In this document: positions 16,360 through 40,531 of the stretch, piece by piece | Numbering within the stretch: position 1 is the stretch's first letter | Layout of the letters: the number at the start of each line of letters is the position of its first letter | Notes under the pieces: generated by a model | What the model saw: the letters and a program-made list of their open reading frames with translations, nothing else | Told to the model about the DNA's origin: nothing | Databases searched by the model: none | IMG/VR virus record: IMGVR_UViG_3300037540_000254 | Coordinates: 1-48,082 of that record | Reading direction: 5' to 3' (one strand) | Length of the DNA stretch: 48,082 nucleotides | Origin: a virus | Translations under genes and position numbers: made by a program

Positions 16360-16890
16360 ATGGGATTTGCTAATTATATATGGGAGTGGGAGGGCGACGA
16401 AACCCAGGCTTTTGGCGAAATGTTTTGGAAGTCAAAGGAATTCCTGTATCCTAAAAAGATCCGGTTTGCGGCTTGTAGGATTATATTCATTACCGGAGAT
16501 CTGGACGAGTACCAGGCGCTTTTAGATGAACGCGAGGCCATTATTAAAAGAAACCTGGACAAACTGGCCACCGGCGCGATCGGCACGATCGGCGGCACCG
16601 AGGGCGGTTTTATCCATGCTCATTATCCGATTGCGGGCGATAACCTGGAAGACGTACCAGCTGAACCAACTTACGCCGGCGAGCTATCTTTGATCTTTAA
16701 ATTATATTGTAATGATATTTTAAGGCATACCAAACAATTATACACTACCGAAATTTTCAAACTGCCAGGAGGCTATCGAGGCCGCAGACATTTCTTTACC
16801 TTAGAGGGTAATGTGGAACGGATCAAACGAGTTGATCTTGCTACCTCAATTTGGGAATTGAAACACGATCAAGGTGAATTCGGAGGTTAA
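16360..16890 (+). CDS. Tail nozzle-like protein, C-terminal portion (separate gene)
   Basis: This 176-residue protein has an AGGAG site. In nozzle-type proteins I recall a C-terminal region that runs 'W.SK.F..P....F....I', then '....LYCNDI....', then 'FKLPGGYR..R..F.LEGN..V..I.LATSI.EL'. This gene has exactly that series ('MFWKSKEFLYPKKIRFAACRIIF', 'FKLYCNDI', 'TTEIFKLPGGYRGRRHFFTLEGNVERIKRVDLATSIWELK'). So it looks like the missing end of the protein at 12513, now a stand-alone subunit separated by the 14089 fibre gene. The two are expected to assemble together. Confidence 0.5.
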   Translation: MGFANYIWEWEGDETQAFGEMFWKSKEFLYPKKIRFAACRIIFITGDLDEYQALLDEREAIIKRNLDKLATGAIGTIGGTEGGFIHAHYPIAGDNLEDVPAEPTYAGELSLIFKLYCNDILRHTKQLYTTEIFKLPGGYRGRRHFFTLEGNVERIKRVDLATSIWELKHDQGEFGG

Positions 16891-16891
16891 A

Positions 16892-19146: not shown

Positions 19147-22100
19147 ATGGCTTTTAGATTAGGTGAGGCAGTTGAATATGATCCGTTTTCGCCCGAACCG
19201 CACAAGGGCGAGGATTTTAAATTAGGCGATCCAGTTGATTATGATCCCTTTAAAGAGGAAGAAGATCAACCAGGGATGATGGACCGGATCGCCGGATATT
19301 TTGAGGCAGAACCGCAGCCCGATATTGCCGGCGAGGTAGCACCGCACCAGCCACCGGCCGAACCAGCTGAAACTGGCCTACCGGAGGAATCCGAATACAT
19401 AGCAGCGCCTGGGCCCCTGGGCGAACCGATGTTAAAAGAGGATTTAGCCGAGCGGCCGATTACACCTTATGAGCAAGCATATCAAGAGGAAATGGCCGCA
19501 TTAGAGGGCGAGCCAGAACCGGACGAGGACGCACTCGAAAGCGAACTCCGGACCGCCCGCGAGGCAGAGGAAACCGGAGAGGCGCCAGCCGAACCCGAAG
19601 TGGATCCGAAAACCGGCCGGCCGATTATTCCGGATACTGAGCCCTGGCGGTGGGATGATGCCAAGAAAGATCTAAAGGCCTGGAAAAAGGCCCGCGCAGA
19701 AAAGGAGAAACGCCACGCGAACAACATAAACGAGGCTAAAAAATCAATTCTTAGGAAAGATCCTGATTACGCTTTTCCGGAGGGCCAGGGCCCCTGGGTA
19801 GATGATCCGCGAGAATTGCACCAAAGAAAGCGCGGCCTGGATCCGAGCGGCCAGGAGATTGATTTTGATGCCAGGGCACCGCGGGATATGACCGGCGAAG
19901 AAAAAAGGAGTTTTGCAAACCAGTTTGGCAGCCGAATGGTGCCAGGCGCCTATACTGGAATAAAAAGATTTGAGCAGGGCCTTTACACCACTAATTATTT
20001 ATTATGGGTACAAAGCGATAAGGAGCACCGAGCGGTACTTGACTCGGTAGTAGATCAAATATCAAAGGGCGCCTTTCCGGATGATGTTCAAAAGCAAGAG
20101 GCCTATAAGGTCAGATTTGCACAAGAGGCCTCGGATCTATGGGGATCCGGATACCTTATCGATGATCTAATTTGGGGTGAGGCCGAAAAACACGGCGTAA
20201 CACTTAAAGAGGATCCGCTCGATATAACCACGTTTTCGAACCCGCCCGAAAACATGGAGGAAACCAAAAAGAAAAACGTCGAGCGGGTTAAGCAAGTACA
20301 GCAGGATATACAGGATTGGTACGAAAAAAATCCAGAATATGCCCTGCCCGATGATTGGGATACATTAACGTCCGATGAACGCGAACAAAAATATCCTGGC
20401 ATATTTTGGGGTGAGCAAGTTTCCACAAATGCAATCAATTCCCTGTTATCGATCGGCACCTATTTAGGAGTACAGGCGGCCACCAAAAACGCAACAATAG
20501 CAACCCTGGCAGCCGGCCTGGTTTTATATCCGGCCTTTGTGCAGGAAATTGACGACGAATTAACCAGGTTAGAACAGGAAGAAGGTATAATAGTGCCCGA
20601 CGAGATTAGGGCGGAGCTCGCATTGTTGGGCGCGATCCCATCATCGATGATCGAGGGCCTTTCCGAGCGGTTTGGTTTTGGCCCTGGCGTGATGAAACAT
20701 TTTAAGAAACTCGGCCAAAAGGCCTTAAAGCGCGAACTGATTAGGCGGTTTGTGCAATCGGCTATGGCAAAAAAAGCCTATACCTTTGCCGGTAAACCTA
20801 CTTTGTGGGTAGCAAAACAGGCGCCCGCCGGATACGCGGAAGAAGCAGGGCAGACTATGGTATCAAACGCGGCCGCTCAATTTGTCGGATCCGAGCGATC
20901 ATTATTTCAAGGTGCAGGCGAGGCCGGCCGGATCGGCGCCTATCTTGAACCGATGTTAGGCGGACCGGCGGCAGCCACCACCGGATTATACCAGGTTAGG
21001 AAAAAGGCCAAAGCAAAAAAAGAGATCACAAAGGCCGAGAATAAAATTAAGGAACTCCTGCAGGATTACGACGGCCAGACGGCCGAGGATATTCTAACAG
21101 GGGAAGAACCGCGGCCAGCCCCAGGGGCACCGGTAGAAGAACCGACCAGGGAAACCGAATTTACAGGCGCCGAGTCAGTAGAGGCCGAGGAAACCGCGGC
21201 CGAATTTACCCCCGAAGAATTAGCGGCGGCAGAGGCAGCCGCACCAGCTGAAAAGCCAGCGCCCGAACCCGCAGCGCCCAGGGCCCCGAAACCGACCGCG
21301 GCCCCGCGTATGGGTGAGAAACCGACGGCCGCAGTTAAACGTATTTGGGGAGTACCCGAACAAGCGGGCGGCAAAAGGGTAGCACCTGGCCGCACCACGC
21401 CGGCCTGGCAGTTGCCAGCAGAAAAACGGCCCGAAGAAATCCAGCGGGTAAAAGAGATCTGGCAGGGCAAGCGGGCACCGAAACGCGGCGGGATTATCGA
21501 GGACGTATCTTTGCCACCGGCTAAAACGCGGATCACGCCGACCGGCCGGCGCAAGGTATTACAAAATTACGCGAATGAATTAGGCAAGGAGGCCGGCGCT
21601 AAAATCCGATTTGATAATGTGGTTTACCAGGACGAGCGGCCAATAGGCCTGCAAATGACCGTGACCGACGGACCGGCCAAAGGCGCCAGGTTTACCATTT
21701 CCGATCGAGCACATAAGACCAGGGCCCAGGCCGAGGCCTTTGTATCAATTATAGTTAATACCTATGCCAATGCCGAGGCGGCGGCGCCGGTCCTGGCACC
21801 TAAGAAAAAGGCACCAAAAAAGGACGCGCAGGCCGAACTTGACCAGCTGGTACAGACTCTTAACCCCGAACAAAAGGCGGCGGTTAAGGATTTAATCGAG
21901 TGGGCAGAAATGCCGATCGATCAACGCCTGGGCCTTATGCGGGCGGAGCTCGCCACCTTAGAGCAAAAAAAGGCACTCAAAGCAGCGGCACCGCCTAAAG
22001 AGGTTATAACAAAACCCGCCATAACCGCCCCACCCCCCGCGCCGGCGGCAGCCGCCCCCCCGACTCCGCCGGCAGCCCCACCAAAGGTTGCGCCAGGGGA

Positions 22101-25100
22101 GAAATTAGAACCCACCGCAGAGATACCAGGTCCGAGTCCTGGGGCCCGATGGACAACAGACCCAGGGGCCATACCAGGCGAACCCCTGCATTTTTTGGAT
22201 CAAACGCCTAACCTATTAGAGGATGATAGCGTAGCGGCCATAATTGAGCATGAGGTAGAGGATGGATCCCTTTTTGAATTGGTGGATCCGGACGGCCGCA
22301 GCCTGGGAATGTTTAAAGATGCCGAAAGCGCAGCACAAGCGGCCGAGGAACAATTCGAGGCGCCGAAAGAGAAAGCGCCGGCAAAGGCTAAACCAGTTTT
22401 GGCAGGCGGGCCCAGGGTGGCACCGGTCCGGAAAACTCCGCCAGGGCCACCACCGGCGGCCCCACCGGCGGCGGTAGAAAAGCCAGCGCCAGAAGAAAAA
22501 CCACTTGAAGTGATAAGACCGCCGGCGGAGCATATCGGATCCGCGGCGCCGATCGTAACCCCGCAAAATCCGGAGGGGTACGATGCTGAATATATGATAG
22601 TCGAGGAAAGGTTTTTAGTACCGAGCCACAATCCGGAAACCTGGCAAAAAGAGGGCGATTATCCGGAGGGCGTACAGGAACGCGCCTATCATTCCGATAC
22701 GGCCGAACAGGCCAAAGTAATTGAACACGCGCAGAAATTAGATCCGCGGATCCTGTTATCAGACGATCCGACGCCTACCAATGGGCCCCCGATTATAACA
22801 GAATCTAATTACGTTATATCCGGAAATTCCAGGGCTATGTCAATCGGCCTGGCCTTTAAGGATCCGAAAAAGGCAGCCAAATATAAAAACCAGCTGGTAT
22901 CTAAGGCCTCATCGTTTGGCCTGGCGCCTAAAAATGTCAAGGCTATGGATAATCCGGTACTGGTCCGCCGGATCGAAACCGAAAACAACGAGGAAATGCG
23001 AAAGCTGGCGCGGGAATTTAACGAAACCATGACGGCCGGCCTGGGCGAGGCCGCGGAAATTGCCTCGATGGGCAAGTCGATTACACCCGAAACAATGGAA
23101 AAGATCGGCACCAGGTTAGCCGACCGCGAGATCTCTTTGCGCGAACTCCTGGGCAAGAAAGACGGCCTTGAAATAATGGGATGGTTAGTGGATGATGGCG
23201 CGATCTCCGCGACACAGAGAACCCAATATTTGAACAAAGCAGGCGATTTATTGAACAAAAGAGGGAAAGAAACGATCGAAAGCGGCATATTTGGTAACAT
23301 CATCGATGATCTGGATCTAATCAATTCCGCCCAAAAATCCCACCTTAATAAAATCGAGAAAAGCCTGGCCGAGCTCGCAAAGGTTAAAGCTCGCGGCGAG
23401 GCCTGGGATATAACGCCGGATCTTAAAGAGGGATTGCGTCTGGCCACGGCAGCCCAGGCGCAAGATCTGAGCGTTAGAGAATTTTTGATGCAGCAACCTT
23501 TATTTGAGGCCAGGGTAGAATATACGACCGTTAGTGAACGCCTGGCCGATCTCATTATCAAGGATAAGCCCACCAGGTTTAAAGAACGCTGGAAAGGTTA
23601 TAGCATCGATGCGGTGGCCGATACGAAAAAGCAAGTCCAAATGTTTAAGCCGAAAACCCAGGCTGAATCCCTGCAGGAACATTTTGACATAGAGGCCGCG
23701 GAAGTCGAGGCGCCGGCCGAGGCCCCAGGGGAGATTGAAGCGGCGGCCGCACCCGAACCGACGGCGGCCCCCGAACCGGCCGAGATAACTAATTACTTTT
23801 CCGGAGCAAACCGCCTGGGCGATATGAAAGGCCATATTCAAGCCGGTGTACCGATCGGTGTAGAGATCTCGGAGCTATCGAAAAACGGCGAGGCCTTATT
23901 GATCGATTACCTAAAAGAGGGCGGCCAGGTATTTATCGACTCCGGAGCATTTGGCGCACAAAAGAAAGGGATCCAGGTAAACTGGCCGGCAGTGCTTAAA
24001 AATTACAAGCGGATAGCGGACGCGGCAGGGGATGGCGCTAAAAACCTGGTGGTGGTGGCACCCGATGTAATAGGGGATCCTTTAGCCACTATTAACATGA
24101 CCGGCAAATATAAAAGAGAATTAAACGTCCTGGCCGAGCAAGGGGTAGGCATTATTTTACCGGTCCACCGGCCGCCGGCGCCAGGTAAATTACGCGATAT
24201 TTGGGCCAATATGATAGGCAGCCTGGACGAGGGAAACAGGGCCCAGGGGATCGCCGGTTTTCCATCACAACACAAAAACCCCGATCGCCTTAATCCGGAA
24301 GATTACGCCGATATTTTTAAGGCCTTTTATCCACCTAAACGAGTGCACTTGTTAGGCATAAGCCCAAAAGCGGACGATTTTAGCGAGAGAACCGCGGAGC
24401 TCCGCCGGCTGGATCCGAATATTGAGATCATAGCAGACGCGAATAGATTGAGGGCCCAGGCCGGCAGAACCTTGAAACCGGAAATTTACGCGGCCGCGGC
24501 GGCCAGAAAAGCAAACGAGGGCCAGGCAAAACCGATCGAGGAATATAAAGATTTAAGGCCCGAATACGAAACCCGCGAGGGATTTGAATATACATTTTTA
24601 CCGGAGGGATTGAACGCGGACAAAGTAATGCAGATCGGAAAGGTTGAGGGCCTACCGGCCGAATTTGTACGCGAGTTTTTATATAATGTGCGTAGCGGGA
24701 TCCTGGGCACCCAGGTTAATTTTGCCATATCCGAGGGCGAATGGCGCGACGATACCATGATACCCTTTAAGGAATTCCACGATATTATTAGCCTGGGCGC
24801 CGAGCAAATAGCGCCGGCCATGAAACGAGCGGATATGGTACAGCTGGCGGTAGAGTGGGAACAAAAAAAGGCAGACGAGCGCGAGGCCGCCCGCGAGAAA
24901 CGCGAGAAAGAGGCAGCCAGGAAACCACCGCTTGAAGCACCTTTAGAAATAACACCAGGGCAAAGATTGGCCGAGCGGATCCGGACCGGCCAGGAGAAAT
25001 TAGCCAACCTGGAAACCTATAAATTAAAAGACCTGGTTAAGGCGGCGCAGGAATTGGGCGTTAGGGCCACCGGAAAAAAGGGCAAGATCTCGCAGCGGAT

Positions 25101-28100
25101 CCGGAAAGAGGCGCCCAGGATCCAGCAGGAATTTGACGAGAGCAAGGGCAAGCAACCCCTGGGTGGATCCGCGCAACAGCTGAAAATGATCCTAACCGGC
25201 CAGCTGGATATTAACCTACCGACCTTAGAACCCCTAAATAAAGAATATTTGCAGAGTCTGGCAATCGCGTTAGGTTTTCCAAAATCCGGCACTAAAGATC
25301 AAATTTCCGCTCGGATCATGGATCTAAAAAGTTTGCGGGATGAAATTAGCGTTTTAACAGAACCGGAGCATTTTACAGAACGATGGAGCAAACCCGAATT
25401 AAAGGATATGGCCGCAAAGGCTAAAGTATGGAAGTCCGGCAACAAGCGCCAGCTGGCCATATCATTAATGACCTGGGCGGCGCGATCGGTGAACCGCGGC
25501 CAGGTGGAAGTGCGGGCGGCGTTAGGCGCGGCGTTAGAGGCCAAAGGCCGCGAGGCAGAGGATATACCGGATAAAGTTTGGGATAAGCTCGGCCTATTAT
25601 ATAAGCCCACCATAACCGAGGAATTGGCAGCCGAATTACCGGCAGAGGAACGCGAGGACGCCGAAGTGCAGGCCGGCCTCGATGCCATGACGCCAGAAGA
25701 AAGGGCGGAAATGGCAAAGGGAGTCGATCAAAAACAGTACGAGAGAATTAAAGCCGGCAAGGATCCTTTAACCAGGAACATAGTAGGAATTATAACAAAA
25801 CCCTGGGTACAACAGCTGGCAATCGACCTGGGCCTGGCCAAGTCCGGCACCAGGGATCAAATAGTCGATCGGATTATCGAGGCTTATGATGGTAAATATT
25901 ATGCGGAAGTAGCACAGGCCGCGCCGGAAACGATACCGGCCGAGGGTATATGGATAGAGGGCCACTTGCAAACGCCGGACCGCTTTGACCGGTGGTGGAC
26001 TCATTTAATAAGGGCCAGAGAGGCCTTAAACGAAATCGCTAAAAAATCTCCGCTCGCTACCGAGTGGCTAAAGGGAGTCGATAACACTGATCTTGATAGT
26101 ATTGTGGCGGCCGTCGATGCTTACGACGAGGCCCAGGTAGAACCGCCGGCAGCCGAGGCACCGGCCGCACCAGCTGAAAAGGCCGCACCGGAGCACGAAA
26201 AGGCGGCCGGATCCACCAAGTTAGCTAATTGGGTAAACAATAAACTGGTTAAAGATGAGTCGATAGCCTGGCGAGATCTTTTCAAGCAGGCCGATACGGC
26301 CTTTGCGGGTACCCAGGCCGCGGGCAAATATAGCCCAAAAGATGCTTATGACGCTATGGAGCAGGGCGTTAATATTTACGTTCACGATCAAATGGCCATG
26401 CGGGATCCGGAAAACGCAGCCGAAAATGTAGCCTGGTTAAAAGAAACGATCGCAAAATTACCGACGCAAACCAAAAGAACGCGGGAGCAAGGAGAGTTTC
26501 AGCAATTCAGCACCCCGCCCCCACTGGCCTATGTGGCTAATTGGGCGGCGAATATCACTGAAAATGATACCTACCTTGAACCCTCGGCCGGTGTGGGCGG
26601 TTTAGCTATTTTTGGCCGCGAGGTAGTAGGCGATCGAGCTATCGTTAATGAACTTTCTCCGAGGCGGGCAGCCCTATTAGGCGAGCTCGGATTTAAAACC
26701 GTCTTTGTTGAGGATGCCAGCCAGCTTGATAATGTATTGCCGGATGCCGTTAAGCCCACCGTAATTGTTATGAATCCGCCATTTAGCGCGACGGCCGGCC
26801 GGTTAAAGGGCATTACGGCCACCAAGTTTGGCGCCCAACAGATCGAGCAAGCATTAAACCGCCTGGAAGATGGCGGCCGCCTGGTGGGTATCGTCGGTAA
26901 GGGCATGGCCGATAATCAACCTGGTTTTAAATCCTGGTGGAAGATTATAAAGGGCAAATATACCGTAAAAGCTAATGTGAGAGTATCCGGCCAGGAGTAC
27001 CGCAAATACGGCACCACGTTTGACAATCAGTTGATAATTATTGACAAAATAGGCCCAACAGACTATACTTTAGTAAAGGGTAAAGTCGATAAGATTGAGG
27101 ATCTTATACCCAAATTGGAGGGCGTTAGAAATGATCGACAAGAAATGGGTAAACCAGGCGCGGAAAGAAAACCGATTGCCGGCAAACCGGCTGGCGCTGA
27201 AATTCCTAAAGCAGAACAACCAGGCGCAGAACCAGGGCCAGTTGTGGATATTGCAGCTGGCGCAGTGGGCCCAGGAGCAAGACCTGGTGAAGTTACCAAA
27301 CCCGCTGCAGGACAAGCTGGACGAGTTGAACAGCTGGCGCCCGAACCTGGCAAGCCAATTCCTGAACCTGAAGCAGTTGAACCTGGACGCGGAGAATTCC
27401 CAGGAACTGATACAGAACCTGGTGAACGAGCTGGACCTGGCACTATCGGAAACGCTGCAGGGGTACCCACCCCTACCGGAGGCGAGTTATCGTTAGATCA
27501 ATTAGATAGCCTTATCGATGAGGTTATCGAGGCAGAACCCACCAAGAAAAAGGCGGCCGCACCTAAGAAACCCGCGGCCGCTAAACCCACCGCCACCAAA
27601 AAACCGGCCAGCCGCGACGATGCCTATAAGCAGATCGCCGGCATTATTAAAGCACTTCCTAAAGCAACCGAGGCCAAAGAAATCGCATTAGCTTACGGTC
27701 AGGATATGACCTTAGAGCATCCGGACGCATACGAGCAGGCCAAACCGGTTATAGAATTCACATATAATGATTTTATCGGTACCGAAAGCGCCACCGAGGA
27801 AAAGGCGCGGCAGTGGATAACCGACGCATATAGGGGCCTTTCGAAGTACGATATAGATCCTGCGATCATTAAAAACTGGATCCTGTATTATTATGCCAAC
27901 GATCGGCCAGGCGCCCTGCCAAAGTCGAAACCAGCACCGACGGCAGCACCGGCCGAGGCAACGCCGGAAAAGAAAGCGGAAATTAAAAAGGTTGAGAAAA
28001 AGCGCGAAGAAATATCCGCCAGCCTGTACGAGGATTATACCGGCGCCGTGACCGGTGCCACAAAGCACCCGACGCCTTTAGTTGAAACGGCCGCCCTGGC

Positions 28101-31100
28101 CGATACCGATTTTCCAAAACTTACATATAAGGTTGATTTGCCGGCCAGCGTTTTAAAACCCAAAAAGGCCGGTATGGGCATATCTGATATTCAATTAGAG
28201 GCCGTTATTTTGGCCGGCCAGGCGCATGAACAAGAATTAATTGACGGCCGCCGGCGCGGATTTTTCGCCGGCCACGGTACCGGAGTGGGTAAAGGCCGGA
28301 TTATCGGCGCTACCATTATGGATAACTGGCGCAAAGGCCGAAAAAAGGCGGTATGGATCTCGGAAAAAGCCAGCCTGGAAACAGACGCCAGGCGGGATCT
28401 AAACTCGATCGGCTGGCCAGAGGGCGGAAAGGCCCTGTTTAATCTGAACAAAACTAAGCTCGGCAGCAAGGTTAAAAAGCACGACCAGGGCATTATGTTT
28501 TCAACCTATAACACCCTGGCCAGCCAGTTTAGTAAGATCGATCCGCAAAAACCGGAAACGCTAAAGGAGCTCCGAGTTAGATTAAATCAGATCCGCGATT
28601 GGTTAGGCGAGGATTACGACGGCATTATCGCCTTTGACGAGTCGCACAATATGGCCAATTCAACGGCGCAACAGGGCACTATGGGAAAAACCACGCCGGC
28701 ACAAAAGGCCCTGGCCGGTATCATGTTAGAGGAATTATTACCAAAAGCCCGCCTGGTTTATGTATCGGCCACCGGCGCCACCGAAGTATCAAATATGGCC
28801 TATCTATCTCGCCTGGGCCTATGGGGCGAGGGCACCCCCTTTGCAAACCAGCGGCAATTTGTCAACTCGATCGCCGGATCCGGCCTGGCCGCTATGGAAA
28901 TGATCGCCAGGAGTTTAAAGGCAAACGGCCTATATACGGCACCATCGTTAAGTTATGACGGTGTAAATTATGACCGCCTGGAACACGACCTAACGCCGGA
29001 CCAGGCCGAAACATACAACACGATAGCGCGGGCCTGGCAAGTGATAATGAAAAACACCGAAAAGGCCCTTGATATAACAAATGGAAACCTAAACGGCGCG
29101 GCAAAGCGGGCGGCGCATAGCAAACTATGGGGCACCCAACAGAGGGTATTTAATCAGATCATAACGGCCATGCAGTTACCGACCATGATAGCCAAGATCG
29201 AAAAGGATATAGCGGCCGGTGACTCGGCGGTTATCCAGCTGGTAAATACAAACGATGCCCAGGCGCAGCGGGCTATGGCAAACCGTAAAGAGGGCGAGGA
29301 AATTGAGGATCTTGATTTCACCCCCAGGGCATCGATCGGTGAATATCTGAGAAAGGCATTTCCTACCGATCAATTTGAAACCTATTTAGACGATGAGGGG
29401 CGCGTAAGAACCAGGCCAGTAACAGACGCGGACGGCCAGCCGGTACAGAACCGAGAGGCTATTGAACTGCGCGAGAAAATGCTGCAGGATTTACGGCGCC
29501 TGGCCATGCCCGATAGCCCGCTGGATCAACTATTAGAAAATTTCGGCCAGGATCAAGTTGCGGAAATGACCGGCCGGAAAAGCAGGGTAATAATCGACTC
29601 GGAAACCGGCACCAAAAAGGAGCAAAAATGGAGCAAGTCTAAGGCCCTAAAAGATGTTGACGCCTTTACCGATGATAAAAAACGTATCCTGGTTTTCTCC
29701 GAGGCCGGCGGCACCGGCGCCAGCTATCACGCGGACCGCACTTTTAAAAACCGGCGGACCAGGCGCCATTATTTACTGCAGGCCGGCTGGACCGCCAGCA
29801 AGGCAGTACAGGGCCTGGGGCGTACCCACCGATCGAACCAAAAGCAACCGCCCGAATATTTCCTTGTTACCACCAATTTAAAAGCGCAAAAGCGTTTTAT
29901 ATCCTCGATCGCCAGGCGCCTTGACCAGCTGGGCGCCCTTACCAAAGGCCAGCGCCAGGCCGGATCCCAGGGGATTTTTCAAGCCCGCGATAACCTTGAA
30001 TCCGATTATGCGCGTGATGCACTGCGTAGGTTTTGGGAACAACTCGCGGATAATGAAATAGAGGGCATGACCTGGCAGCAGTGGGAAGAACAGAGCGGCA
30101 CTAAAATAGTGGATCCGCAAACCGGCGCCCTTTACGCGCAGACTCCCGATATGATCCGGACCATGAATAGAATGTTATCAATGGAGATCGACTCGCAGAA
30201 TATCGCCTTTGATGCGTTTTCGAAAAACCTGGATGCGGTTATACAGGAACACGCCGACGCCGGCACCCTCGATGTAGGTATCGAAACGATTACCGGCCTG
30301 GCAGTGGAAAAGGTATCTGAAAAGGTTGTTCATACGGTAGATGAAACCGGATCCACCGCTAATTATGTGCGCGTTAAAGTAACCAATCCATCAAATAAGG
30401 TGGCCTGGGAAAGTGTACGCGGCCAGCCGATTTTTCAAAATGTCAGATCCGGCAAAGTATGGGCGGGATCCGTGAGGCGATCGAGGACAACCAAACAGGG
30501 CGCGATCATTAATTATAGAGTCCTGCGATCGACGGCCGATACCACGCAACGCGCAGACGAGGACGTATTACAGGATCCTAAGAAGTGGCAACAGATGGAA
30601 GATAAGCCAGCCCAGGAGGAATGGAACAAGCAATTTACAACAATACCGGAAACCAGCGATCGTACTATCGATATGCTAACCGGCGATCTGCTACCTATTT
30701 GGGATCGATTAACCGGATTTGCCACCGTTTACCGCCTGCAGACCGACGCCGGCGAGCGACTATTAGGCCGCGTCCTGGCACCGCATGATGTTGATACCGT
30801 CCTTGAACGCCTGGGAGTGACCGCGGAAAAGGTCGAGGTTAAAAATAAAGATCTCGGCAATAAGATCTTAGCCGGCGGGCGGGCCACCCTGGCGAATGGA
30901 TGGGAGATCAAAAAGTCGATGGTATCCGGAGATGAGCGGATCGAGTTGATAGGGCCCCGCGGATCCGAGATCGATCTATTAGAAAAGCAGGGCGCCTTTG
31001 TTGAGGAAATAAGTTTTAGAGATCGGATCTTTATACCCACCACCGGTACCGCAACTATTTTTGACCGGATCCTGGTAAACCGGCCAGTGGTTAAAATGAT

Positions 31101-34100
31101 AACCGCCTACCAGGGGCCCAGGATCGCAGATACCGAAGTATCAGAACCCACCGCGGAGCTCGCGCAGAAAGTTAAAAAGAAAGTCGATGCCGGCGGCAAG
31201 ATCTCGCAGCTGGATATGTTTACCGGCACCGACTTTGAAACCCTGGATCCGATACCGGAGGGCCCGCAATATGTGACGGTTAAATCAACCGGCAAGATGG
31301 GATTTGAAAGCAACGTGATTGCCGACGTTCACGACGCGGCCGCCTTTGCAGCGCCCCTGGCGGATATGGCCCAGGAAAAAGGCTTTATGATTTCAACCGA
31401 TGCCCAGGGCGAAATTATAGAGGTACACTTTATCGGCAAGGGCGGCCGGTCCTCGGTGGGGATCCCGCTTGTTGAAACAGTAGGCCGGCTATTCAATACC
31501 CCAGGAGTGGCAAAGGCCTATTTTATACATAACCACCCATCCGGCAGGGTAGAACCCTCGGCAGAGGATCGAGGCATGGCCCGAAATATGGGCAAGATCG
31601 CGGCCACCGGCGGTATCGAAATGGATCAAGCGATAATAGCCGGTGACGAATACGCGACTTACAAGGCCACCAAAACACAAACCCTGGCATCCACCACAAA
31701 GAAGATCCGGAAAACAACCCGCAAAAAGAGAATTCCGGTAGTTGAGCGGGTGATTAAGCGCAAGGGCCCAGGCAAAGTAATAGCCAATTCCAACGATGCG
31801 CGGGAGCACATAAAAGATGTTTACGGCGATCGCCAGGGCTTTATGTTTTTAGATACAGGCCTGCGCGATATTGGTTTTTTAGAATTTAAACCAGGAACGC
31901 CGGCGCGGCAGCTGGTACACGATTTAATTCAAGAGGGCGAGCGCATTAATGCGACCGGATTTTTGTTTCATTCCAAGTCAGAAAGCCAGGAAATGCCGGC
32001 CGATCGCTTTACATTTTTAAAAGAATGGCAGAAACAGATCGGCAGCGGCGCCATGCAGCTATTTGAAATTTTGCACAATGGGGTATCCTATGCGGACGCC
32101 GGCGCGTTTACCAAAACTGGCATAATAGGCAAGCCGGATTACCAGGCGGATTATAGAATTATTTTAAGTGATGTACCGATTTACGCCAGCAAAAAGATAG
32201 CGCCGACCACCCCGCAAACGGTTGAAGATGTAAATTTGATGGTCAACGCGGTAACGGCACAATGGACAAGGGGCGGACCCGCGATCAAGGTATATCGCAC
32301 CCAGGAGGGATTGCCTAATATCGTTAAAGATTATTTGAAAGGGGAAAACCGCGAGGCTGATATTATAACCGGCGCCTATTATGATAACACTATTTACCTG
32401 GTAGCTGAAAACCTGGGATCCAACGAGGAAACCACCCAAACAATCTTACATGAGGGATTCGGCCACCACGGCCTGCGCGGTACCCTGGGCAAAGATGTTT
32501 TTCCGGTCCTGCGCGATCTGTATATAGCCAAAAAGGCGGAAGTGAACGCGATCGGCGCCGAGCTCGGCATTAATACGAAAACGGTTGACGGCCAGCTGCA
32601 GGCGGCCGAGGAATGGTTTGCCAACCAGGCGCAACTCGGTATCGAGTCAAAATGGTATGACCGCCTGGTACGCGCCATTAGAAACTGGATCCGGAAGATC
32701 GCAAACGCGGCCGGTATCGATATGGCCTTATCGGATCCGGAGATACGCGCCCTTATCGCTGCAGCGCGACAATTTACCCTGGCCGGCCAAAAGGTATCGG
32801 CCCACCCAGGCGCCACGCCGGCATTTAAAAAGAAGAAATACGGCAAGCGGATTGATTATAAACAACACTTAACCCCCGAACAGCAGCGCCGGATTAAAGC
32901 GGCCAAAGGAGTAGGCACCGAGGGATTTATCGAAAAGCGGAAAGAGGATCTAAAGCGATTGGCGGCCGAGCGGCAACACTTTCCGGAGCTAACCAAAGTT
33001 GAGGATCCAACCTTACGGCACCAGCTGGCGGATATTTTGCGCGTCCACCAGGAAATACCCGAAGTGGCCAAACAACAGACGGCCGAGAAAATGCGGGAAT
33101 TCATTAAGGATCTAAGCACAGACGCCTATGATGTTTACACGATGAATATAATCTTAGCCGATATGATCCGCGATATTGAAACCGGCCTGCTTAATAATCA
33201 GATGTTGGGCAAGGGCGAAACTTTCCCATTTGGTTTTGAGTCCGTCGAGCAGATAGCAGAAACGCATGAAAAATTTAAGACCCTGGCCAACGTCCATCCG
33301 GAGATCGGCACCGCTTTAAGGGAACGAAAGGCCTATATCGATGAAATGGCGCGGCAGCTGGTTAAATTTAAGATCCTTAAAAAGGAAGTTTTAAAGCATA
33401 ATGATTATTACCACCACCAGGTACTGCAGTATTGGGGCACAAAGGAGCAGAAAGGCAAAGGGGTAGCAACCGGATCCGCGGACGTAAGGCAACACTGGCG
33501 CCCCTGGATGGCCGCCCGAAAGGGATCCTTACTCGATTATAATACTGAATACGTCGAGGCCGAATTTGTGGCGCTATCGCAACAATACGCGCAAGTCGAA
33601 ACGGCAAAAACCCTGCAGCGGCTTAAAAACAAGGCGGATATATACGCGGATCTCAAAGACCAGGCAAAAAGGAAAAATTTAGTCAATTTCTATAAGCAGG
33701 AGGCCGAAAAACTATCTAAAATGTTTAAGACCACCATTACCCCTGCAGAGGTAATGGCCGACCACGAATTAGACCCCCTGTTTCAATACCGCCAGGCGAT
33801 TGCTATGTCGATCAACGCATTAGAGGGCATGGCGTACAAGGGCAAACTCGGCGGCGATTCAGAGTGGCAGGAGATAATAGACGGCCTGGCTATCGCGCAT
33901 GAGGATAAAAAAGAGGACCGCGAGGGAGTGTTTAGCCCTATTCCGGACGGCCGGCTATTTGATTTCCTGGCCTACCTGGTCCGGACCGGTCAACCTGGCG
34001 CGTCCTGGGCGGCCACGATCTTTAAAAATATCCACGGCAGGAGTAAGCATATAGAGGATGCCCTGGGCAAAAACTTTTTAACCTGGAAAACTGAAATGCC

Positions 34101-35982
34101 GGCCGGCTATGTGGAATGGAAACCCGAACCTGGTAAAGGCTGGTATTGGGCAAATACCCTGGCCGATCAAGTCCTGCAGCAAGTTATCGCCGGCGAGCGG
34201 GATTTGCAGGATACCGACGTTAGGCAAGTCCTGGCAAAGGGCCATGAGATTATTTGGGTATTACCGGAGGGATTAGCCGAAACCCTGGATAATTTCAAAC
34301 AACCGCCGGAGCTCCGATCAATCGGCCGAATGTCAGAGGCGGCATTAAGGGCCTGGAAACAGTATATCTTGATTAATCCCCTGCGCGTTATCCGGTACAA
34401 TCTAAACAACATGAGCGGCGATCTGGATATTACCCTGGCCTATAATCCCAGGATCCTAAAGCATTTTTTCGGCGCGATCCGCGATCTTAGGAGATACGGC
34501 AAGGGCACCGCCAGCGGAAGATTAAAAACCGAAATGGATTTGGCCCGCAAATTAGGTGTGATTGGTAGTGGCTGGTCGGTGCAAGAAGTCGAGGATATAA
34601 CAAAACAGATGGGCCTCGATAAGTTTGTGCGTAATATCATAATGGGCCAAAAGCCGAACCTGGCCGTCAAGTATTGGGAGGCCGCTAAAAATGCCACCAC
34701 CTTTAGAGAAAACATTTTACGCCTGGCCGCCTTTAGGCATTTTAAAAAGGAAGTCAAAAAGGGTAAAGGGGTGTATGGCGCCAGCAAGCGGCCGGAAATA
34801 GATGCGATCACGGATCCAACAGAAAGGGCAGCCAAACTGGCCCGCGAACTGGTGGGCGATTATGGGAATATATCTCATTCCGGCCAGTGGATCCGCAAGC
34901 GCATGATGCCGTTTTATAGCTGGATGGAAATTAATAGCCCCAGGTACGTCTATATGCTTAGAAACGTCCGCCATGAGGGCAGAAAGCCTGGCCAGGCAGT
35001 TAGCCGGATGGGCATTAAAGCACTCACCAAAACCGCCGGATTTGGCGTAAAGACCATGATGCTTTACACATTGGTACAGATCTGGAACCATCTATTATAT
35101 CCGGATGAGGAAAAAGAATTTGGAGAGGCCGGCCGGCGCCAGCTGCATTTAATATTAGGCCGGCGGGATGATGGAACGATTAGATCAATCCGTTTCCAGG
35201 GCGCCTTGTCTGATACGCTATCCTTTTTCGGCCTGGAAGATTGGCCCGACGATGTTAGAGATATTTACAAAAGCGAGGATCGAGTAGCGACGGTACAGGA
35301 AAAATTGATCGAGGTACCAAAGGCCTTTAGCACCCGACTTTATCACGGCGTAAGGCCCGAACCTAAACTCTTATTTGAGGGATTGAGCGGATACAGCTTT
35401 TATCCGGATCCGTATAGCCCGCGGCCGATCCGCGATACCGCGCAGCATATATTAAGAACCTTTAGCCTGGACAAGATTTATAATCGAGCAGTGGGCAAGC
35501 CTGGGCGCGGCAAAAATGTGGCCATGCACTTTTTAAACGATTTGAAAAGCCTTTTAATCTATACCTCGGATCCAGGCGAGCAGGCTTATTATGATGTACG
35601 CAATATGGTTATCGAGCATAAGAAAAAGACCGGTGACGAGCGGCCGAGCGGCCGGCCTACCAACAAGGGCAACGCGCTTTATTATTACCGGCAGGCCCTA
35701 AAGTATGGCGATTTTGAAGCGGCCGAGCGGTACCTGGTTAAATACTATGAATACGGCGGCAAGCGCACCGGCATTAAGGCGAGCATCAAAAGGGCCCATC
35801 CATTATCCGGCATTAAAAAAATGCAGCGGCGCAGTTTTAGAAAAGATCTTAGTCCTGCAGAACAAAAAACCCTGGAACGCGCTATCGAGTGGTATGATAA
35901 AACCTATCGGCAGCCAGGATCCAGGGATATAAGAATAAGGGCAAGGAAAACCTATCGAGAAAAGTTAGCGGCGAACCGTTAA
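19147..35982 (+). CDS. Giant polyvalent protein (5,611 aa): ParB/DdrB, TGT-like, SAP repeats, DNA methylase, SNO helicase, RadC-JAB, zincin, LPD38-like
   Basis: One uninterrupted frame starts at an ATG with AGGTGA upstream. Residues 1-~130 are acidic and ~430-510 hydrophobic. A ParB/DdrB-like domain spans ~1150-1455 (SGNSR 1225-1229). A tRNA-guanine-transglycosylase/DpdA-like barrel spans ~1547-1790 (DSGAF near 1598). Four SAP-like repeats lie between ~1958 and 2249. An adenine-type methylase spans ~2445-2650 (EPSAGVGG, then NPPF from 2543). A Pro/Ala/Gly linker covers ~2667-2780. A strawberry-notch SF2 helicase spans ~2990-3600 (GxGxGKG ending at 3050, DESH 3164-3167, QGLGRTHRSNQ ~3555). A RadC-like JAB spans ~4040-4170 (H4128, H4130, D4141), with a weaker copy to ~4320. 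A zincin motif HEGFGHH begins at 4435. An LPD38-like end covers ~5075-5440. These domains are known from polyvalent anti-restriction proteins of phages and plasmids such as P1 DarB. Injection with the DNA is inferred from its neighbours. Confidence 0.85.
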   Translation: MAFRLGEAVEYDPFSPEPHKGEDFKLGDPVDYDPFKEEEDQPGMMDRIAGYFEAEPQPDIAGEVAPHQPPAEPAETGLPEESEYIAAPGPLGEPMLKEDLAERPITPYEQAYQEEMAALEGEPEPDEDALESELRTAREAEETGEAPAEPEVDPKTGRPIIPDTEPWRWDDAKKDLKAWKKARAEKEKRHANNINEAKKSILRKDPDYAFPEGQGPWVDDPRELHQRKRGLDPSGQEIDFDARAPRDMTGEEKRSFANQFGSRMVPGAYTGIKRFEQGLYTTNYLLWVQSDKEHRAVLDSVVDQISKGAFPDDVQKQEAYKVRFAQEASDLWGSGYLIDDLIWGEAEKHGVTLKEDPLDITTFSNPPENMEETKKKNVERVKQVQQDIQDWYEKNPEYALPDDWDTLTSDEREQKYPGIFWGEQVSTNAINSLLSIGTYLGVQAATKNATIATLAAGLVLYPAFVQEIDDELTRLEQEEGIIVPDEIRAELALLGAIPSSMIEGLSERFGFGPGVMKHFKKLGQKALKRELIRRFVQSAMAKKAYTFAGKPTLWVAKQAPAGYAEEAGQTMVSNAAAQFVGSERSLFQGAGEAGRIGAYLEPMLGGPAAATTGLYQVRKKAKAKKEITKAENKIKELLQDYDGQTAEDILTGEEPRPAPGAPVEEPTRETEFTGAESVEAEETAAEFTPEELAAAEAAAPAEKPAPEPAAPRAPKPTAAPRMGEKPTAAVKRIWGVPEQAGGKRVAPGRTTPAWQLPAEKRPEEIQRVKEIWQGKRAPKRGGIIEDVSLPPAKTRITPTGRRKVLQNYANELGKEAGAKIRFDNVVYQDERPIGLQMTVTDGPAKGARFTISDRAHKTRAQAEAFVSIIVNTYANAEAAAPVLAPKKKAPKKDAQAELDQLVQTLNPEQKAAVKDLIEWAEMPIDQRLGLMRAELATLEQKKALKAAAPPKEVITKPAITAPPPAPAAAAPPTPPAAPPKVAPGEKLEPTAEIPGPSPGARWTTDPGAIPGEPLHFLDQTPNLLEDDSVAAIIEHEVEDGSLFELVDPDGRSLGMFKDAESAAQAAEEQFEAPKEKAPAKAKPVLAGGPRVAPVRKTPPGPPPAAPPAAVEKPAPEEKPLEVIRPPAEHIGSAAPIVTPQNPEGYDAEYMIVEERFLVPSHNPETWQKEGDYPEGVQERAYHSDTAEQAKVIEHAQKLDPRILLSDDPTPTNGPPIITESNYVISGNSRAMSIGLAFKDPKKAAKYKNQLVSKASSFGLAPKNVKAMDNPVLVRRIETENNEEMRKLAREFNETMTAGLGEAAEIASMGKSITPETMEKIGTRLADREISLRELLGKKDGLEIMGWLVDDGAISATQRTQYLNKAGDLLNKRGKETIESGIFGNIIDDLDLINSAQKSHLNKIEKSLAELAKVKARGEAWDITPDLKEGLRLATAAQAQDLSVREFLMQQPLFEARVEYTTVSERLADLIIKDKPTRFKERWKGYSIDAVADTKKQVQMFKPKTQAESLQEHFDIEAAEVEAPAEAPGEIEAAAAPEPTAAPEPAEITNYFSGANRLGDMKGHIQAGVPIGVEISELSKNGEALLIDYLKEGGQVFIDSGAFGAQKKGIQVNWPAVLKNYKRIADAAGDGAKNLVVVAPDVIGDPLATINMTGKYKRELNVLAEQGVGIILPVHRPPAPGKLRDIWANMIGSLDEGNRAQGIAGFPSQHKNPDRLNPEDYADIFKAFYPPKRVHLLGISPKADDFSERTAELRRLDPNIEIIADANRLRAQAGRTLKPEIYAAAAARKANEGQAKPIEEYKDLRPEYETREGFEYTFLPEGLNADKVMQIGKVEGLPAEFVREFLYNVRSGILGTQVNFAISEGEWRDDTMIPFKEFHDIISLGAEQIAPAMKRADMVQLAVEWEQKKADEREAAREKREKEAARKPPLEAPLEITPGQRLAERIRTGQEKLANLETYKLKDLVKAAQELGVRATGKKGKISQRIRKEAPRIQQEFDESKGKQPLGGSAQQLKMILTGQLDINLPTLEPLNKEYLQSLAIALGFPKSGTKDQISARIMDLKSLRDEISVLTEPEHFTERWSKPELKDMAAKAKVWKSGNKRQLAISLMTWAARSVNRGQVEVRAALGAALEAKGREAEDIPDKVWDKLGLLYKPTITEELAAELPAEEREDAEVQAGLDAMTPEERAEMAKGVDQKQYERIKAGKDPLTRNIVGIITKPWVQQLAIDLGLAKSGTRDQIVDRIIEAYDGKYYAEVAQAAPETIPAEGIWIEGHLQTPDRFDRWWTHLIRAREALNEIAKKSPLATEWLKGVDNTDLDSIVAAVDAYDEAQVEPPAAEAPAAPAEKAAPEHEKAAGSTKLANWVNNKLVKDESIAWRDLFKQADTAFAGTQAAGKYSPKDAYDAMEQGVNIYVHDQMAMRDPENAAENVAWLKETIAKLPTQTKRTREQGEFQQFSTPPPLAYVANWAANITENDTYLEPSAGVGGLAIFGREVVGDRAIVNELSPRRAALLGELGFKTVFVEDASQLDNVLPDAVKPTVIVMNPPFSATAGRLKGITATKFGAQQIEQALNRLEDGGRLVGIVGKGMADNQPGFKSWWKIIKGKYTVKANVRVSGQEYRKYGTTFDNQLIIIDKIGPTDYTLVKGKVDKIEDLIPKLEGVRNDRQEMGKPGAERKPIAGKPAGAEIPKAEQPGAEPGPVVDIAAGAVGPGARPGEVTKPAAGQAGRVEQLAPEPGKPIPEPEAVEPGRGEFPGTDTEPGERAGPGTIGNAAGVPTPTGGELSLDQLDSLIDEVIEAEPTKKKAAAPKKPAAAKPTATKKPASRDDAYKQIAGIIKALPKATEAKEIALAYGQDMTLEHPDAYEQAKPVIEFTYNDFIGTESATEEKARQWITDAYRGLSKYDIDPAIIKNWILYYYANDRPGALPKSKPAPTAAPAEATPEKKAEIKKVEKKREEISASLYEDYTGAVTGATKHPTPLVETAALADTDFPKLTYKVDLPASVLKPKKAGMGISDIQLEAVILAGQAHEQELIDGRRRGFFAGHGTGVGKGRIIGATIMDNWRKGRKKAVWISEKASLETDARRDLNSIGWPEGGKALFNLNKTKLGSKVKKHDQGIMFSTYNTLASQFSKIDPQKPETLKELRVRLNQIRDWLGEDYDGIIAFDESHNMANSTAQQGTMGKTTPAQKALAGIMLEELLPKARLVYVSATGATEVSNMAYLSRLGLWGEGTPFANQRQFVNSIAGSGLAAMEMIARSLKANGLYTAPSLSYDGVNYDRLEHDLTPDQAETYNTIARAWQVIMKNTEKALDITNGNLNGAAKRAAHSKLWGTQQRVFNQIITAMQLPTMIAKIEKDIAAGDSAVIQLVNTNDAQAQRAMANRKEGEEIEDLDFTPRASIGEYLRKAFPTDQFETYLDDEGRVRTRPVTDADGQPVQNREAIELREKMLQDLRRLAMPDSPLDQLLENFGQDQVAEMTGRKSRVIIDSETGTKKEQKWSKSKALKDVDAFTDDKKRILVFSEAGGTGASYHADRTFKNRRTRRHYLLQAGWTASKAVQGLGRTHRSNQKQPPEYFLVTTNLKAQKRFISSIARRLDQLGALTKGQRQAGSQGIFQARDNLESDYARDALRRFWEQLADNEIEGMTWQQWEEQSGTKIVDPQTGALYAQTPDMIRTMNRMLSMEIDSQNIAFDAFSKNLDAVIQEHADAGTLDVGIETITGLAVEKVSEKVVHTVDETGSTANYVRVKVTNPSNKVAWESVRGQPIFQNVRSGKVWAGSVRRSRTTKQGAIINYRVLRSTADTTQRADEDVLQDPKKWQQMEDKPAQEEWNKQFTTIPETSDRTIDMLTGDLLPIWDRLTGFATVYRLQTDAGERLLGRVLAPHDVDTVLERLGVTAEKVEVKNKDLGNKILAGGRATLANGWEIKKSMVSGDERIELIGPRGSEIDLLEKQGAFVEEISFRDRIFIPTTGTATIFDRILVNRPVVKMITAYQGPRIADTEVSEPTAELAQKVKKKVDAGGKISQLDMFTGTDFETLDPIPEGPQYVTVKSTGKMGFESNVIADVHDAAAFAAPLADMAQEKGFMISTDAQGEIIEVHFIGKGGRSSVGIPLVETVGRLFNTPGVAKAYFIHNHPSGRVEPSAEDRGMARNMGKIAATGGIEMDQAIIAGDEYATYKATKTQTLASTTKKIRKTTRKKRIPVVERVIKRKGPGKVIANSNDAREHIKDVYGDRQGFMFLDTGLRDIGFLEFKPGTPARQLVHDLIQEGERINATGFLFHSKSESQEMPADRFTFLKEWQKQIGSGAMQLFEILHNGVSYADAGAFTKTGIIGKPDYQADYRIILSDVPIYASKKIAPTTPQTVEDVNLMVNAVTAQWTRGGPAIKVYRTQEGLPNIVKDYLKGENREADIITGAYYDNTIYLVAENLGSNEETTQTILHEGFGHHGLRGTLGKDVFPVLRDLYIAKKAEVNAIGAELGINTKTVDGQLQAAEEWFANQAQLGIESKWYDRLVRAIRNWIRKIANAAGIDMALSDPEIRALIAAARQFTLAGQKVSAHPGATPAFKKKKYGKRIDYKQHLTPEQQRRIKAAKGVGTEGFIEKRKEDLKRLAAERQHFPELTKVEDPTLRHQLADILRVHQEIPEVAKQQTAEKMREFIKDLSTDAYDVYTMNIILADMIRDIETGLLNNQMLGKGETFPFGFESVEQIAETHEKFKTLANVHPEIGTALRERKAYIDEMARQLVKFKILKKEVLKHNDYYHHQVLQYWGTKEQKGKGVATGSADVRQHWRPWMAARKGSLLDYNTEYVEAEFVALSQQYAQVETAKTLQRLKNKADIYADLKDQAKRKNLVNFYKQEAEKLSKMFKTTITPAEVMADHELDPLFQYRQAIAMSINALEGMAYKGKLGGDSEWQEIIDGLAIAHEDKKEDREGVFSPIPDGRLFDFLAYLVRTGQPGASWAATIFKNIHGRSKHIEDALGKNFLTWKTEMPAGYVEWKPEPGKGWYWANTLADQVLQQVIAGERDLQDTDVRQVLAKGHEIIWVLPEGLAETLDNFKQPPELRSIGRMSEAALRAWKQYILINPLRVIRYNLNNMSGDLDITLAYNPRILKHFFGAIRDLRRYGKGTASGRLKTEMDLARKLGVIGSGWSVQEVEDITKQMGLDKFVRNIIMGQKPNLAVKYWEAAKNATTFRENILRLAAFRHFKKEVKKGKGVYGASKRPEIDAITDPTERAAKLARELVGDYGNISHSGQWIRKRMMPFYSWMEINSPRYVYMLRNVRHEGRKPGQAVSRMGIKALTKTAGFGVKTMMLYTLVQIWNHLLYPDEEKEFGEAGRRQLHLILGRRDDGTIRSIRFQGALSDTLSFFGLEDWPDDVRDIYKSEDRVATVQEKLIEVPKAFSTRLYHGVRPEPKLLFEGLSGYSFYPDPYSPRPIRDTAQHILRTFSLDKIYNRAVGKPGRGKNVAMHFLNDLKSLLIYTSDPGEQAYYDVRNMVIEHKKKTGDERPSGRPTNKGNALYYYRQALKYGDFEAAERYLVKYYEYGGKRTGIKASIKRAHPLSGIKKMQRRSFRKDLSPAEQKTLERAIEWYDKTYRQPGSRDIRIRARKTYREKLAANR
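27131..27496 (+). CDS. Candidate overprinted gene nested in the giant gene (121 aa, +1 frame)
   Basis: In the frame one base ahead of the giant gene, an ATG at 27131 has GGAGGG at 27117-27122 and opens 121 codons ending in TAG. The product starts 'MIDKKWVNQARKENRLPANR' and is helical, rich in Leu, Gln and Asn, with Trp at several places ('LQLAQWAQEQDLVKLP', 'QDKLDELNSWRPN'), so it reads like a folded protein. It uses codons typical of this phage (CTG-G, CAG, AAC, GCG). The giant frame here is low complexity (Pro/Ala/Gly/Glu) and switches to codons rare elsewhere in it (CCT, GCT, GGA, CGA). Function unknown. A chance frame opened by the repeated Glu-Pro-Gly linker is the alternative. Confidence 0.45.
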   Translation: MIDKKWVNQARKENRLPANRLALKFLKQNNQAQNQGQLWILQLAQWAQEQDLVKLPNPLQDKLDELNSWRPNLASQFLNLKQLNLDAENSQELIQNLVNELDLALSETLQGYPPLPEASYR

Positions 35983-36191
35983 GGATCTCGGCCGCCTTTA
36001 ATATACCGGAGCATCGGCGGATCATCCACCGGCGCAACATAGGTAATCCCCCGCCAAATATAAAAGGCCAGGCCCTGCTCGGCATGGATCAATTCACCAT
36101 ACATTTTGGCCCTTTCCATATCATGCGGATCGGCATAAAATACTTTATGATCGTAAACTTTGCCGACTATTTTAAGAATATCATCCATCAT
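35979..36191 (-). CDS. Small hypothetical protein, last gene of the leftward operon
   Basis: This 70-residue protein starts at the ATG at 36191, overlapping the end of the VRR-NUC gene by 11 bases; a GTG at 36218 is possible but would lie deeper in that gene. The sequence 'MMDDILKIVGKVYDHKVFYADPHDMERAKMYGELIHAEQGLAFYIWRGITYVAPVDDPPMLRYIKGGRDP' is a helix followed by a small beta part, without recognised domain. Its stop codon shares the TTAA at 35979-35982 with the stop of the giant gene on the other strand, so the two units converge with no gap. Confidence 0.5.
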   Translation of the reverse strand: MMDDILKIVGKVYDHKVFYADPHDMERAKMYGELIHAEQGLAFYIWRGITYVAPVDDPPMLRYIKGGRDP

Positions 36192-39317: not shown

Positions 39318-39318
39318 A

Positions 39319-40530: not shown

Positions 40531-40531
40531 G

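What the first reader, a model, noticed from the sequence alone, without database searches (positions are those of the whole stretch)
19147..35982. A 5,611-residue polyvalent protein with at least seven recognisable activities in one frame
Seen: one uninterrupted frame of 16.8 kb with ParB/DdrB-like, TGT-like, SAP-like, DNA methylase (NPPF), SF2 helicase (DESH, QGLGRTHR), RadC-JAB (HNHPSG) and zincin (HEGFGHH) motifs. Known: proteins of this kind (P1 DarB class, large polyvalent proteins) are packaged and delivered with DNA to counter restriction. Inferred: this phage injects a complete DNA protection kit. The size and the combination of a barrel transglycosylase-like domain with the usual set look unusual, and gene order beside ejection proteins supports virion packaging.
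Basis: partly seen in the sequence, partly recalled or inferred. Interest (0 to 1): 0.75.

Follow-up and report, generated by a model that had tools for sequence, protein, structure and literature searches.

The report
Giant phage protein with DpdA-like domain
A phage gene encodes one 5,611-residue protein that strings together DNA-handling enzymes. One of them resembles DpdA, which swaps guanine bases in DNA for modified ones; that part recurs in other giant phage and plasmid proteins but has not been described there before, as far as I could find.

Summary
One open frame (19147-35982, 5,611 aa) holds a DdrB-like ParB domain, a barrel domain, SAP motifs, an adenine-methylase-like domain, a Strawberry-notch helicase, RadC and an HEXXXH zincin-like motif. 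It is a large polyvalent protein from a Bcep22-like podovirus. Relatives carry giants of 5,408 and about 6,000 aa at the same place, so size is not the news. It is not a DarB orthologue by sequence.

The news is the barrel (residues 1548-1790). It is a DpdA-like transglycosylase domain, supported by three database-wide profile hits, profile-profile comparison with six phage DpdAs, a confident (beta/alpha)8 model, and conserved acidic residues plus the DpdA-specific histidine. It is a clean insertion relative to one relative and is shared with another whose methylase-helicase differs. The same domain sits in at least eight other giant phage ORFs and in plasmid proteins, six times with or beside a methylase-helicase pair. 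None of these viruses has preQ0-synthesis genes; three DpdA phages checked do. Polyvalent-protein papers read here do not list it.

Most likely it is ejected with the DNA and modifies guanines using host-made preQ0 (inferred). The substrate is untested. Packaging rests on virion mass spectrometry of the syntenic protein in phage JC1.

The parts
19147..35982 (+). single open reading frame of the large polyvalent protein, 5,611 aa
19147..21195 (+). N-terminal region (res 1-683), 57% identical to relative L009; candidate packaging/ejection region (the N-terminus of relative L010 hits DarB-like and N4-type virion RNA polymerase profiles)
22573..22974 (+). DdrB-like ParB domain (res 1143-1276)
   Evidence: PF18763 2.6e-19
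23761..24879 (+). exchangeable module (res 1539-1911): DpdA-like barrel plus C-terminal extension, shared with L010 at 59% identity, absent from L009
23788..24516 (+). DpdA-like (beta/alpha)8 barrel (res 1548-1790); D1598, D1640, H1734, D1764 at conserved positions
25240..25320 (+). SAP_new25 domain (res 2032-2058)
   Evidence: 3.2e-8
25816..25887 (+). SAP domain (res 2224-2247)
   Evidence: 3.1e-5
26413..27057 (+). DNA methyltransferase-like domain (res 2423-2637) with NPPF at 2543
   Evidence: PHROG 9133 3e-17, PHROG 6263 1e-10
28177..29022 (+). Strawberry-notch helicase N-terminal ATPase AAA_34 (res 3011-3292), DESH at 3164
   Evidence: 1.4e-95
29518..30288 (+). Strawberry-notch helicase C-terminal domain Helicase_C_4 (res 3458-3714), QGLGRTHR at 3555
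   Evidence: 2.2e-84
31330..31665 (+). RadC-like JAB domain (res 4062-4173), HNHPSG at 4128
   Evidence: PF04002 1.7e-12
32176..32826 (+). zincin-like region (res 4344-4560), HEXXXH at 4435-4440 and downstream EEW at 4488
   Evidence: motif level only
32176..35970 (+). constant C-terminal region (res 4344-5608), 62-70% identical in both relatives
12513..14084 (+). internal virion protein upstream, used to place the virus among Bcep22-like podoviruses
   Evidence: phrog_511 2.2e-106; tblastn
16874..17947 (+). virion structural protein just upstream
   Evidence: phrog_8003 6.5e-8

Best explanation
The gene makes a large polyvalent protein (about 620 kDa at 110 Da per residue) of a Bcep22-like podovirus. 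It is most likely packaged in the virion and ejected with the DNA (inferred by synteny and precedent). Inside the cell the methylase-plus-Strawberry-notch translocase tracks along the incoming DNA and methylates it. The DpdA-like barrel exchanges guanines in that DNA for a 7-deazaguanine, preQ0 or a derivative, that the host already makes, since no synthesis genes were found in the virus. Together these hide the DNA from restriction during the first minutes. The HEXXXH zincin-like part may cut the polypeptide into working pieces; the ParB, SAP and RadC parts bind or process DNA. Shown: the domains, their conservation, the modular swap, the recurrence of the DpdA-like domain in other giants, and the lack of preQ0 genes in the records at hand. 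Inferred: packaging, DNA as the substrate, host-supplied base, self-cleavage.
For: DpdA-like identity: PHROG 887 is hit independently by this protein (1.9e-6), L010 (3.6e-7) and L142 (2.5e-7). Profile-profile against six phage DpdAs gives probability 96.7, E 3.6e-10 and 9.1e-9 for the wider family, while a reversed decoy gives 0.2. Of 20 weak tblastn hits in phages (E 0.1-1), 14 are annotated queuine/queuosine tRNA-ribosyltransferase, 6 are unnamed, none is named otherwise; the six I opened lie beside folE/queD genes. The barrel model has pLDDT 82.9, pTM 0.78 and eight strands; its best fold match among viral proteins is a polyvalent protein (4e-19), then a phage queuine tRNA-ribosyltransferase (1e-5). 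D1598, D1640, H1734 and D1764 fall at the strand ends expected; H1734 aligns with the DpdA histidine 196, and the D-D spacing of 42 is identical. Linkage to DNA modification: with or beside a methylase-helicase in this protein, L010, L142, L055, L118 and plasmid L148. No QueC, PTPS or FolE in 13 virus records with the domain; all three present in 3 of 3 DpdA phages. Phage 9g DpdA alone puts preQ0 into plasmid DNA in E. coli (PMC6884629). The JC1 giant is in virions (PMC9144972).
Against: No activity is shown. The PDB fold search returned generic TIM barrels at low TM-score (0.5 or less on the query), with no TGT in the top 50, and Pfam TGT does not match. The record is a fragment that starts inside the capsid gene, so preQ0 genes could lie in the missing part; several comparison records are fragments too. 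The window's own giant has no detectable blastp match to the BcepIL02 giant, so packaging is inferred from position and from relative L010. Relative G001 does without the domain.
Confidence: 0.45

Rival explanations
1. The DpdA-like domain acts on host tRNA (or other RNA), as canonical TGT does, for example to alter translation or to counter tRNA-cleaving defences, rather than on DNA.
For: The main substrate of the TGT superfamily is tRNA (established knowledge); no DNA substrate is shown here; some giants carry the domain without a methylase-helicase in the stretch seen (L025, L031, plasmid L147).
Against: It is closer to phage DpdA than to E. coli TGT, lacks the TGT zinc-site cysteines (no cysteine in the domain), has the DpdA-type histidine, and is repeatedly tied to DNA methylase-helicase pairs.
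Confidence: 0.22
2. The barrel is a nucleobase hydrolase or glycosylase-like enzyme that removes bases from host DNA, or acts on nucleotide signals or modified bases, as a host-attack or counter-defence enzyme without base exchange.
For: No source of replacement base is encoded; fold searches also list AP-endonuclease and UV-endonuclease type barrels; polyvalent proteins are known for nucleotide-targeting enzymes (PMC5512222, PMC7824862).
Against: The motif set of DpdA is kept, including the last-strand acidic residue in all members long enough to show it, and phage 9g DpdA is known to use host preQ0.
Confidence: 0.17
3. The giant is made late and works in the producing cell on progeny DNA; it is not ejected.
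For: There is no proteomics for this virus; the gene lies behind the late operon, which alone does not show ejection.
Against: The syntenic JC1 giant is in virions with 51 unique peptides, P1 DarB is targeted into the capsid, and the N-terminus of relative L010 matches DarB-like and N4 virion RNA polymerase profiles.
Confidence: 0.1

Closest known systems
Large polyvalent proteins of phages and conjugative elements (Iyer et al. 2017, PMC5512222)
   Same: many unrelated domains in one chain; DdrB-ParB, RadC, methylase-helicase dyad and HEXXXH metallopeptidase all described there; gene beside virion genes
   Different: no TGT, queuine or TIM-barrel term in that paper's text
DarB-like giants of Bcep22-like phages (BcepIL02 gp70 4,667 aa; JC1 gp69 4,515 aa)
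   Same: same place in the genome after the internal virion genes, similar size; relative L010 aligns with gp70 over the methylase-helicase at 29%
   Different: window protein has a Strawberry-notch helicase and no detectable blastp match to gp70; no DpdA-like domain in gp70
Phage DpdA (Queuovirinae phages such as 9g and SE1)
   Same: DSGAF, GDP, PxxH and HxxG motifs, last-strand Asp, conserved His196, barrel
   Different: fused inside a giant protein; no folE/queD/queC in the genome; about 22% identity
Singleton DpdA-like TGT of mycobacteriophages (for example Bhagsy gp55)
   Same: related sister branch (hhalign probability 97.8); singleton DpdAs without preQ0 genes are reported in PMC6884629
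   Different: standalone of about 200 aa with DNG instead of DSG; not polyvalent

Membership tests
Large polyvalent protein (Iyer 2017) | several domains of disparate activity in one polypeptide | tested here: met
Large polyvalent protein (Iyer 2017) | encoded in a mobile element, for phages beside late/virion genes | tested here: met
Large polyvalent protein (Iyer 2017) | zincin-like metallopeptidase domain (common, HEXXH or HEXXXH) | tested here: inconclusive
   HEXXXH and downstream Glu conserved in three viruses; predicted order helix, three strands, helix with HEXXXH and a later helix with the conserved Glu broadly fits the described core, but pLDDT 61 and no fold match
Large polyvalent protein (Iyer 2017) | delivered with the DNA | not testable with these tools
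   precedent only: JC1 gp69 virion MS, P1 DarB capsid targeting
P1 DarB / DarB-like antirestriction | sequence match to DarB-like family (PHROG 10089) | tested here: not met
   no hit for the window protein; relative L010 hits at 6e-199
P1 DarB / DarB-like antirestriction | adenine methylase fused to SWI2/SNF2-clade helicase | tested here: met
   methylase PHROGs plus Strawberry-notch helicase, a rare variant in PMC5512222
DpdA (phage DNA 7-deazaguanine transglycosylase) | sequence-profile relation to DpdA | tested here: met
DpdA (phage DNA 7-deazaguanine transglycosylase) | acidic residues of TGT (strand 3 DSG, strand 8 Asp) and conserved His196 | tested here: met
   D1598, D1764, H1734; H196 located in SE1 DpdA
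DpdA (phage DNA 7-deazaguanine transglycosylase) | (beta/alpha)8 barrel | tested here: met
   viral fold matches, PDB matches generic TIM barrels only
DpdA (phage DNA 7-deazaguanine transglycosylase) | base exchange in DNA | not testable with these tools
   needs LC-MS of DNA
Canonical tRNA-guanine transglycosylase | match to Pfam TGT PF01702 and the C-terminal zinc site | tested here: not met
   no match at E<=1; no cysteine in the domain sequence

The most novel reading that the evidence does not exclude
A widespread, undescribed class of injected DpdA: phages and conjugative elements deliver, inside polyvalent proteins, a base-exchange domain that rewrites guanines of the incoming DNA at once with host-made 7-deazaguanine, coupled to a translocating methylase, so that protection needs no new synthesis and no preQ0 genes.
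Probability: 0.35. Interest if true: 0.78.

Novelty: new variant of a known kind. Interest (0 to 1): 0.56.

Why it matters
DNA with modified guanines is thought of as something a phage makes while replicating, usually with its own synthesis genes. A DpdA-like domain carried in a protein that is probably ejected would let DNA be re-marked on entry, using a base the host makes for its tRNA. The family is found here in phages and in plasmids (46 and 58 plasmid records in two searches), mostly annotated as hypothetical protein or not annotated, so one simple assay would give a function to many unknown proteins and add an enzyme to the polyvalent-protein list.

Tried and rejected
Single-sequence scans of viral contigs with the TGT and helicase parts found no relatives; the internal virion protein did. 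The genome-contig scan with A1 drew patterns from a poorly conserved stretch and found nothing. tblastn of residues 1452-2218 and of the C-terminal 1,093 residues in phages gave no match. A sequence-profile search of the PDB with the domain and with true DpdAs gave nothing sensible, so the missing TGT hit there is not evidence against. hhalign to E. coli TGT aligned only the DSG motif. Considered and rejected: peptidoglycan lytic transglycosylase (no such profile hit; DpdA-type motifs instead); recent foreign origin of the module (third-position GC 0.563 against 0.554 +/- 0.038 along the gene). The zincin fold test failed for lack of sequences.

Full report
What is in the window. The window is a whole IMG/VR virus record of 48,082 bases, a linear fragment that begins inside the major head protein (phrog_334 from profile position 215). 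A head/tail/internal-virion operon runs to 19139, followed by one frame of 5,611 codons, 19147-35982. The internal virion protein at 12513-14084 matches Bcep22-like podoviruses and kin (BcepIL02, JC1, Itty13, PBC5, Atu_ph08) at 28-32% identity. In BcepIL02 the same place holds gp70, 4,667 aa, 'DarB-like antirestriction', and in Microcystis phage Mwe-JY07 a 4,985-aa 'putative DNA methylase'.

Domain content. Pfam: ddrB-ParB at residues 1143-1276, SAP at 2032-2058 and 2224-2247, AAA_34 at 3011-3292, Helicase_C_4 at 3458-3714, RadC at 4062-4173. PHROGs: DNA methyltransferase at 2423-2637 and queuine tRNA-ribosyltransferase at 1592-1647. The zincin-like part has HEXXXH (4435-4440), a variant described for polyvalent proteins (PMC5512222), conserved in three related viruses with a downstream EEW. 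The model is poor (pLDDT 61) and has no fold match, so this part stays at motif level.

The barrel is DpdA-like. PHROG 887 is hit separately by this protein, by L010 and by L142. Weak tblastn hits in annotated phages all point the same way: 14 of 20 are named queuine/queuosine tRNA-ribosyltransferase, 6 are unnamed, none has another name. Six opened loci have folE and queD beside the gene. hhalign of the domain pair against those six gives probability 96.7, E 3.6e-10; the 13-member family gives 9.1e-9 and a reversed decoy 0.2. AlphaFold2 on a 24-sequence alignment gives a confident barrel, pLDDT 82.9, pTM 0.78, eight strands. Its best match among viral models is an ART-containing polyvalent protein (4e-19), then a phage queuine tRNA-ribosyltransferase (1e-5). 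The PDB search gives only generic TIM barrels. The motif order of E. coli TGT (TDSGGFQ, FDE, IIQG, GYAVGG, YLMGVG, MFDC; sequence) is mirrored by FIDSGAF, APD, ILPVH, GIAGFP, HLLGIS, IIADAN; this was read by eye on the two sequences. H1734 corresponds to the DpdA histidine 196 named in PMC6884629: the K-x-H-x-F-G histidine of Nonagvirus SE1 DpdA is residue 196. It is present in all 12 members long enough to show it. The canonical TGT zinc site is absent (no cysteine) and Pfam TGT does not match.

It is an exchangeable module. G001 (65,064 bases) has a 5,408-aa giant that is collinear with ours over most of its length at about 40-70% identity and has the ParB, methylase and Strawberry-notch regions and the zincin motif, but no barrel; the ParB part runs through a proline/alanine-rich linker straight into the SAP-like stretch. 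G004 (63,192 bases) has a 6,001-aa giant that shares with ours only residues 660-955, the module 1539-1911 (59%), and the C-terminal 4344-5608 (64%); its methylase-helicase is the DarB type. So in close relatives the DpdA-like module is gained or lost independently of which methylase-helicase is present.

It is a recurrent domain of polyvalent proteins. DNA-pattern scans of 2.9 million viral contigs followed by HMM search put the DSGAF-type domain in giant ORFs: L142 (methylase, Strawberry-notch helicase), L055 (helicase, methylase), L031 (ADP-ribosyltransferase, zeta-toxin-like kinase), L025 (LPD38), L027 (ddrB-ParB upstream, as here), L067/L088 and L070; L118 fuses it to a polyvalent-type pyrophosphatase beside a methylase-SNF2 gene. 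A sister branch (DNG type) is the 'DpdA-like tRNA-guanine transglycosylase' of mycobacteriophages and also occurs in giants such as L102, with RadC, kinase, pyrophosphatase and ART. On plasmids, 58 records match: a Cupriavidus LPD1 polyvalent protein of 2,174 aa carries it, and in Shewanella a 396-aa version lies next to a methylase-SNF2 gene with one small gene between. Sampling was by pattern, so these are examples, not frequencies.

Source of the base. QueC, PTPS (QueD) and FolE are absent from this record and from twelve other virus records with the domain (and from G001), several of them fragments, and present in 3 of 3 DpdA phages used as positive controls. Published work shows that phage 9g DpdA expressed alone puts preQ0 into plasmid DNA in E. 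coli, that is, with host-made base (PMC6884629), and that singleton DpdAs exist.

Delivery. The JC1 giant, in the same position, was found in CsCl-purified virions with 51 unique peptides (PMC9144972). P1 DarB is targeted to the capsid (PMC9024508). The N-terminus of L010 matches DarB-like and virion RNA polymerase profiles. For the window's own protein this remains inference.

Comparison with what is known. The text of the polyvalent-protein survey holds no TGT or queuine term. Library searches for polyvalent protein plus DpdA or queuine found only a BREX paper that cites the survey. The library is incomplete, so novelty is 'not found', not proven. I file the protein as a large polyvalent protein with a DpdA-like domain: a new variant of a known kind.

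Verdict. Observation confirmed; interpretation partly supported. The size is ordinary and the DarB label does not hold by sequence. The DpdA-like module is real, recurrent and, as far as I could find, undescribed in this setting. Interest 0.56.

Noticed in passing
L102, L039, L085, L080: A sister branch (DNG motif) of the DpdA-like domain sits in further giant ORFs; L102 combines it with RadC, polyvalent kinase, inorganic pyrophosphatase and ART.
   Followed up: partly
L154:14890-15531 (Erythrobacter phage ZS04 gp101): A 213-aa standalone DpdA-like (DNG) protein is annotated 'DarB-like antirestriction protein', perhaps because some DarB-like family members contain this domain; looks like annotation transfer.
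   Followed up: partly
L149:9001-9819 (Pseudomonas aeruginosa plasmid NZ_CP095924.1): A DpdA-like protein on a conjugative megaplasmid is annotated 'phage tail protein'; many Pseudomonas plasmids carry copies as hypothetical proteins.
   Followed up: no
L148:1-1551, L149:15567-16367, L151:6505-7224: Genes named phosphoadenosine phosphosulfate reductase lie near DpdA-like genes on two plasmids and upstream of the giant in BcepIL02; a possible link to DNA modification, not tested.
   Followed up: no
L010 residues 1-717 (L010:17653-19803, - strand): The N-terminus of the related giant matches both DarB-like (2e-22) and N4-type virion RNA polymerase (3.9e-17) profiles, a hint of a shared packaging or ejection region.
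   Followed up: partly
L031 (2,729-aa open ORF): Polyvalent protein with ADP-ribosyltransferase, DpdA-like domain and zeta-toxin-like kinase in one chain.
   Followed up: no
window 36181-36561 (-): Small ORF just behind the giant with a weak match to VRR_NUC nuclease (E 1.4e-4, slightly under the Pfam cut-off).
   Followed up: no
window 36849-40605 (-): Two opposite-strand ORFs behind the giant: 829 aa without any Pfam match, and a calcineurin-like phosphoesterase; Mwe-JY07 has two opposite-strand carbohydrate esterase genes in the same place.
   Followed up: no
window 44561-45490 (+): Phage replication initiation O-like protein with Phg_2220_C; part of the early region.
   Followed up: no
window 17970-19136 (+): The 389-aa ORF right before the giant has only a weak match to an integrase PHROG (9.5e-4), probably chance; ORFs of 390 and 393 aa lie at the same place in the relatives.
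   Followed up: no
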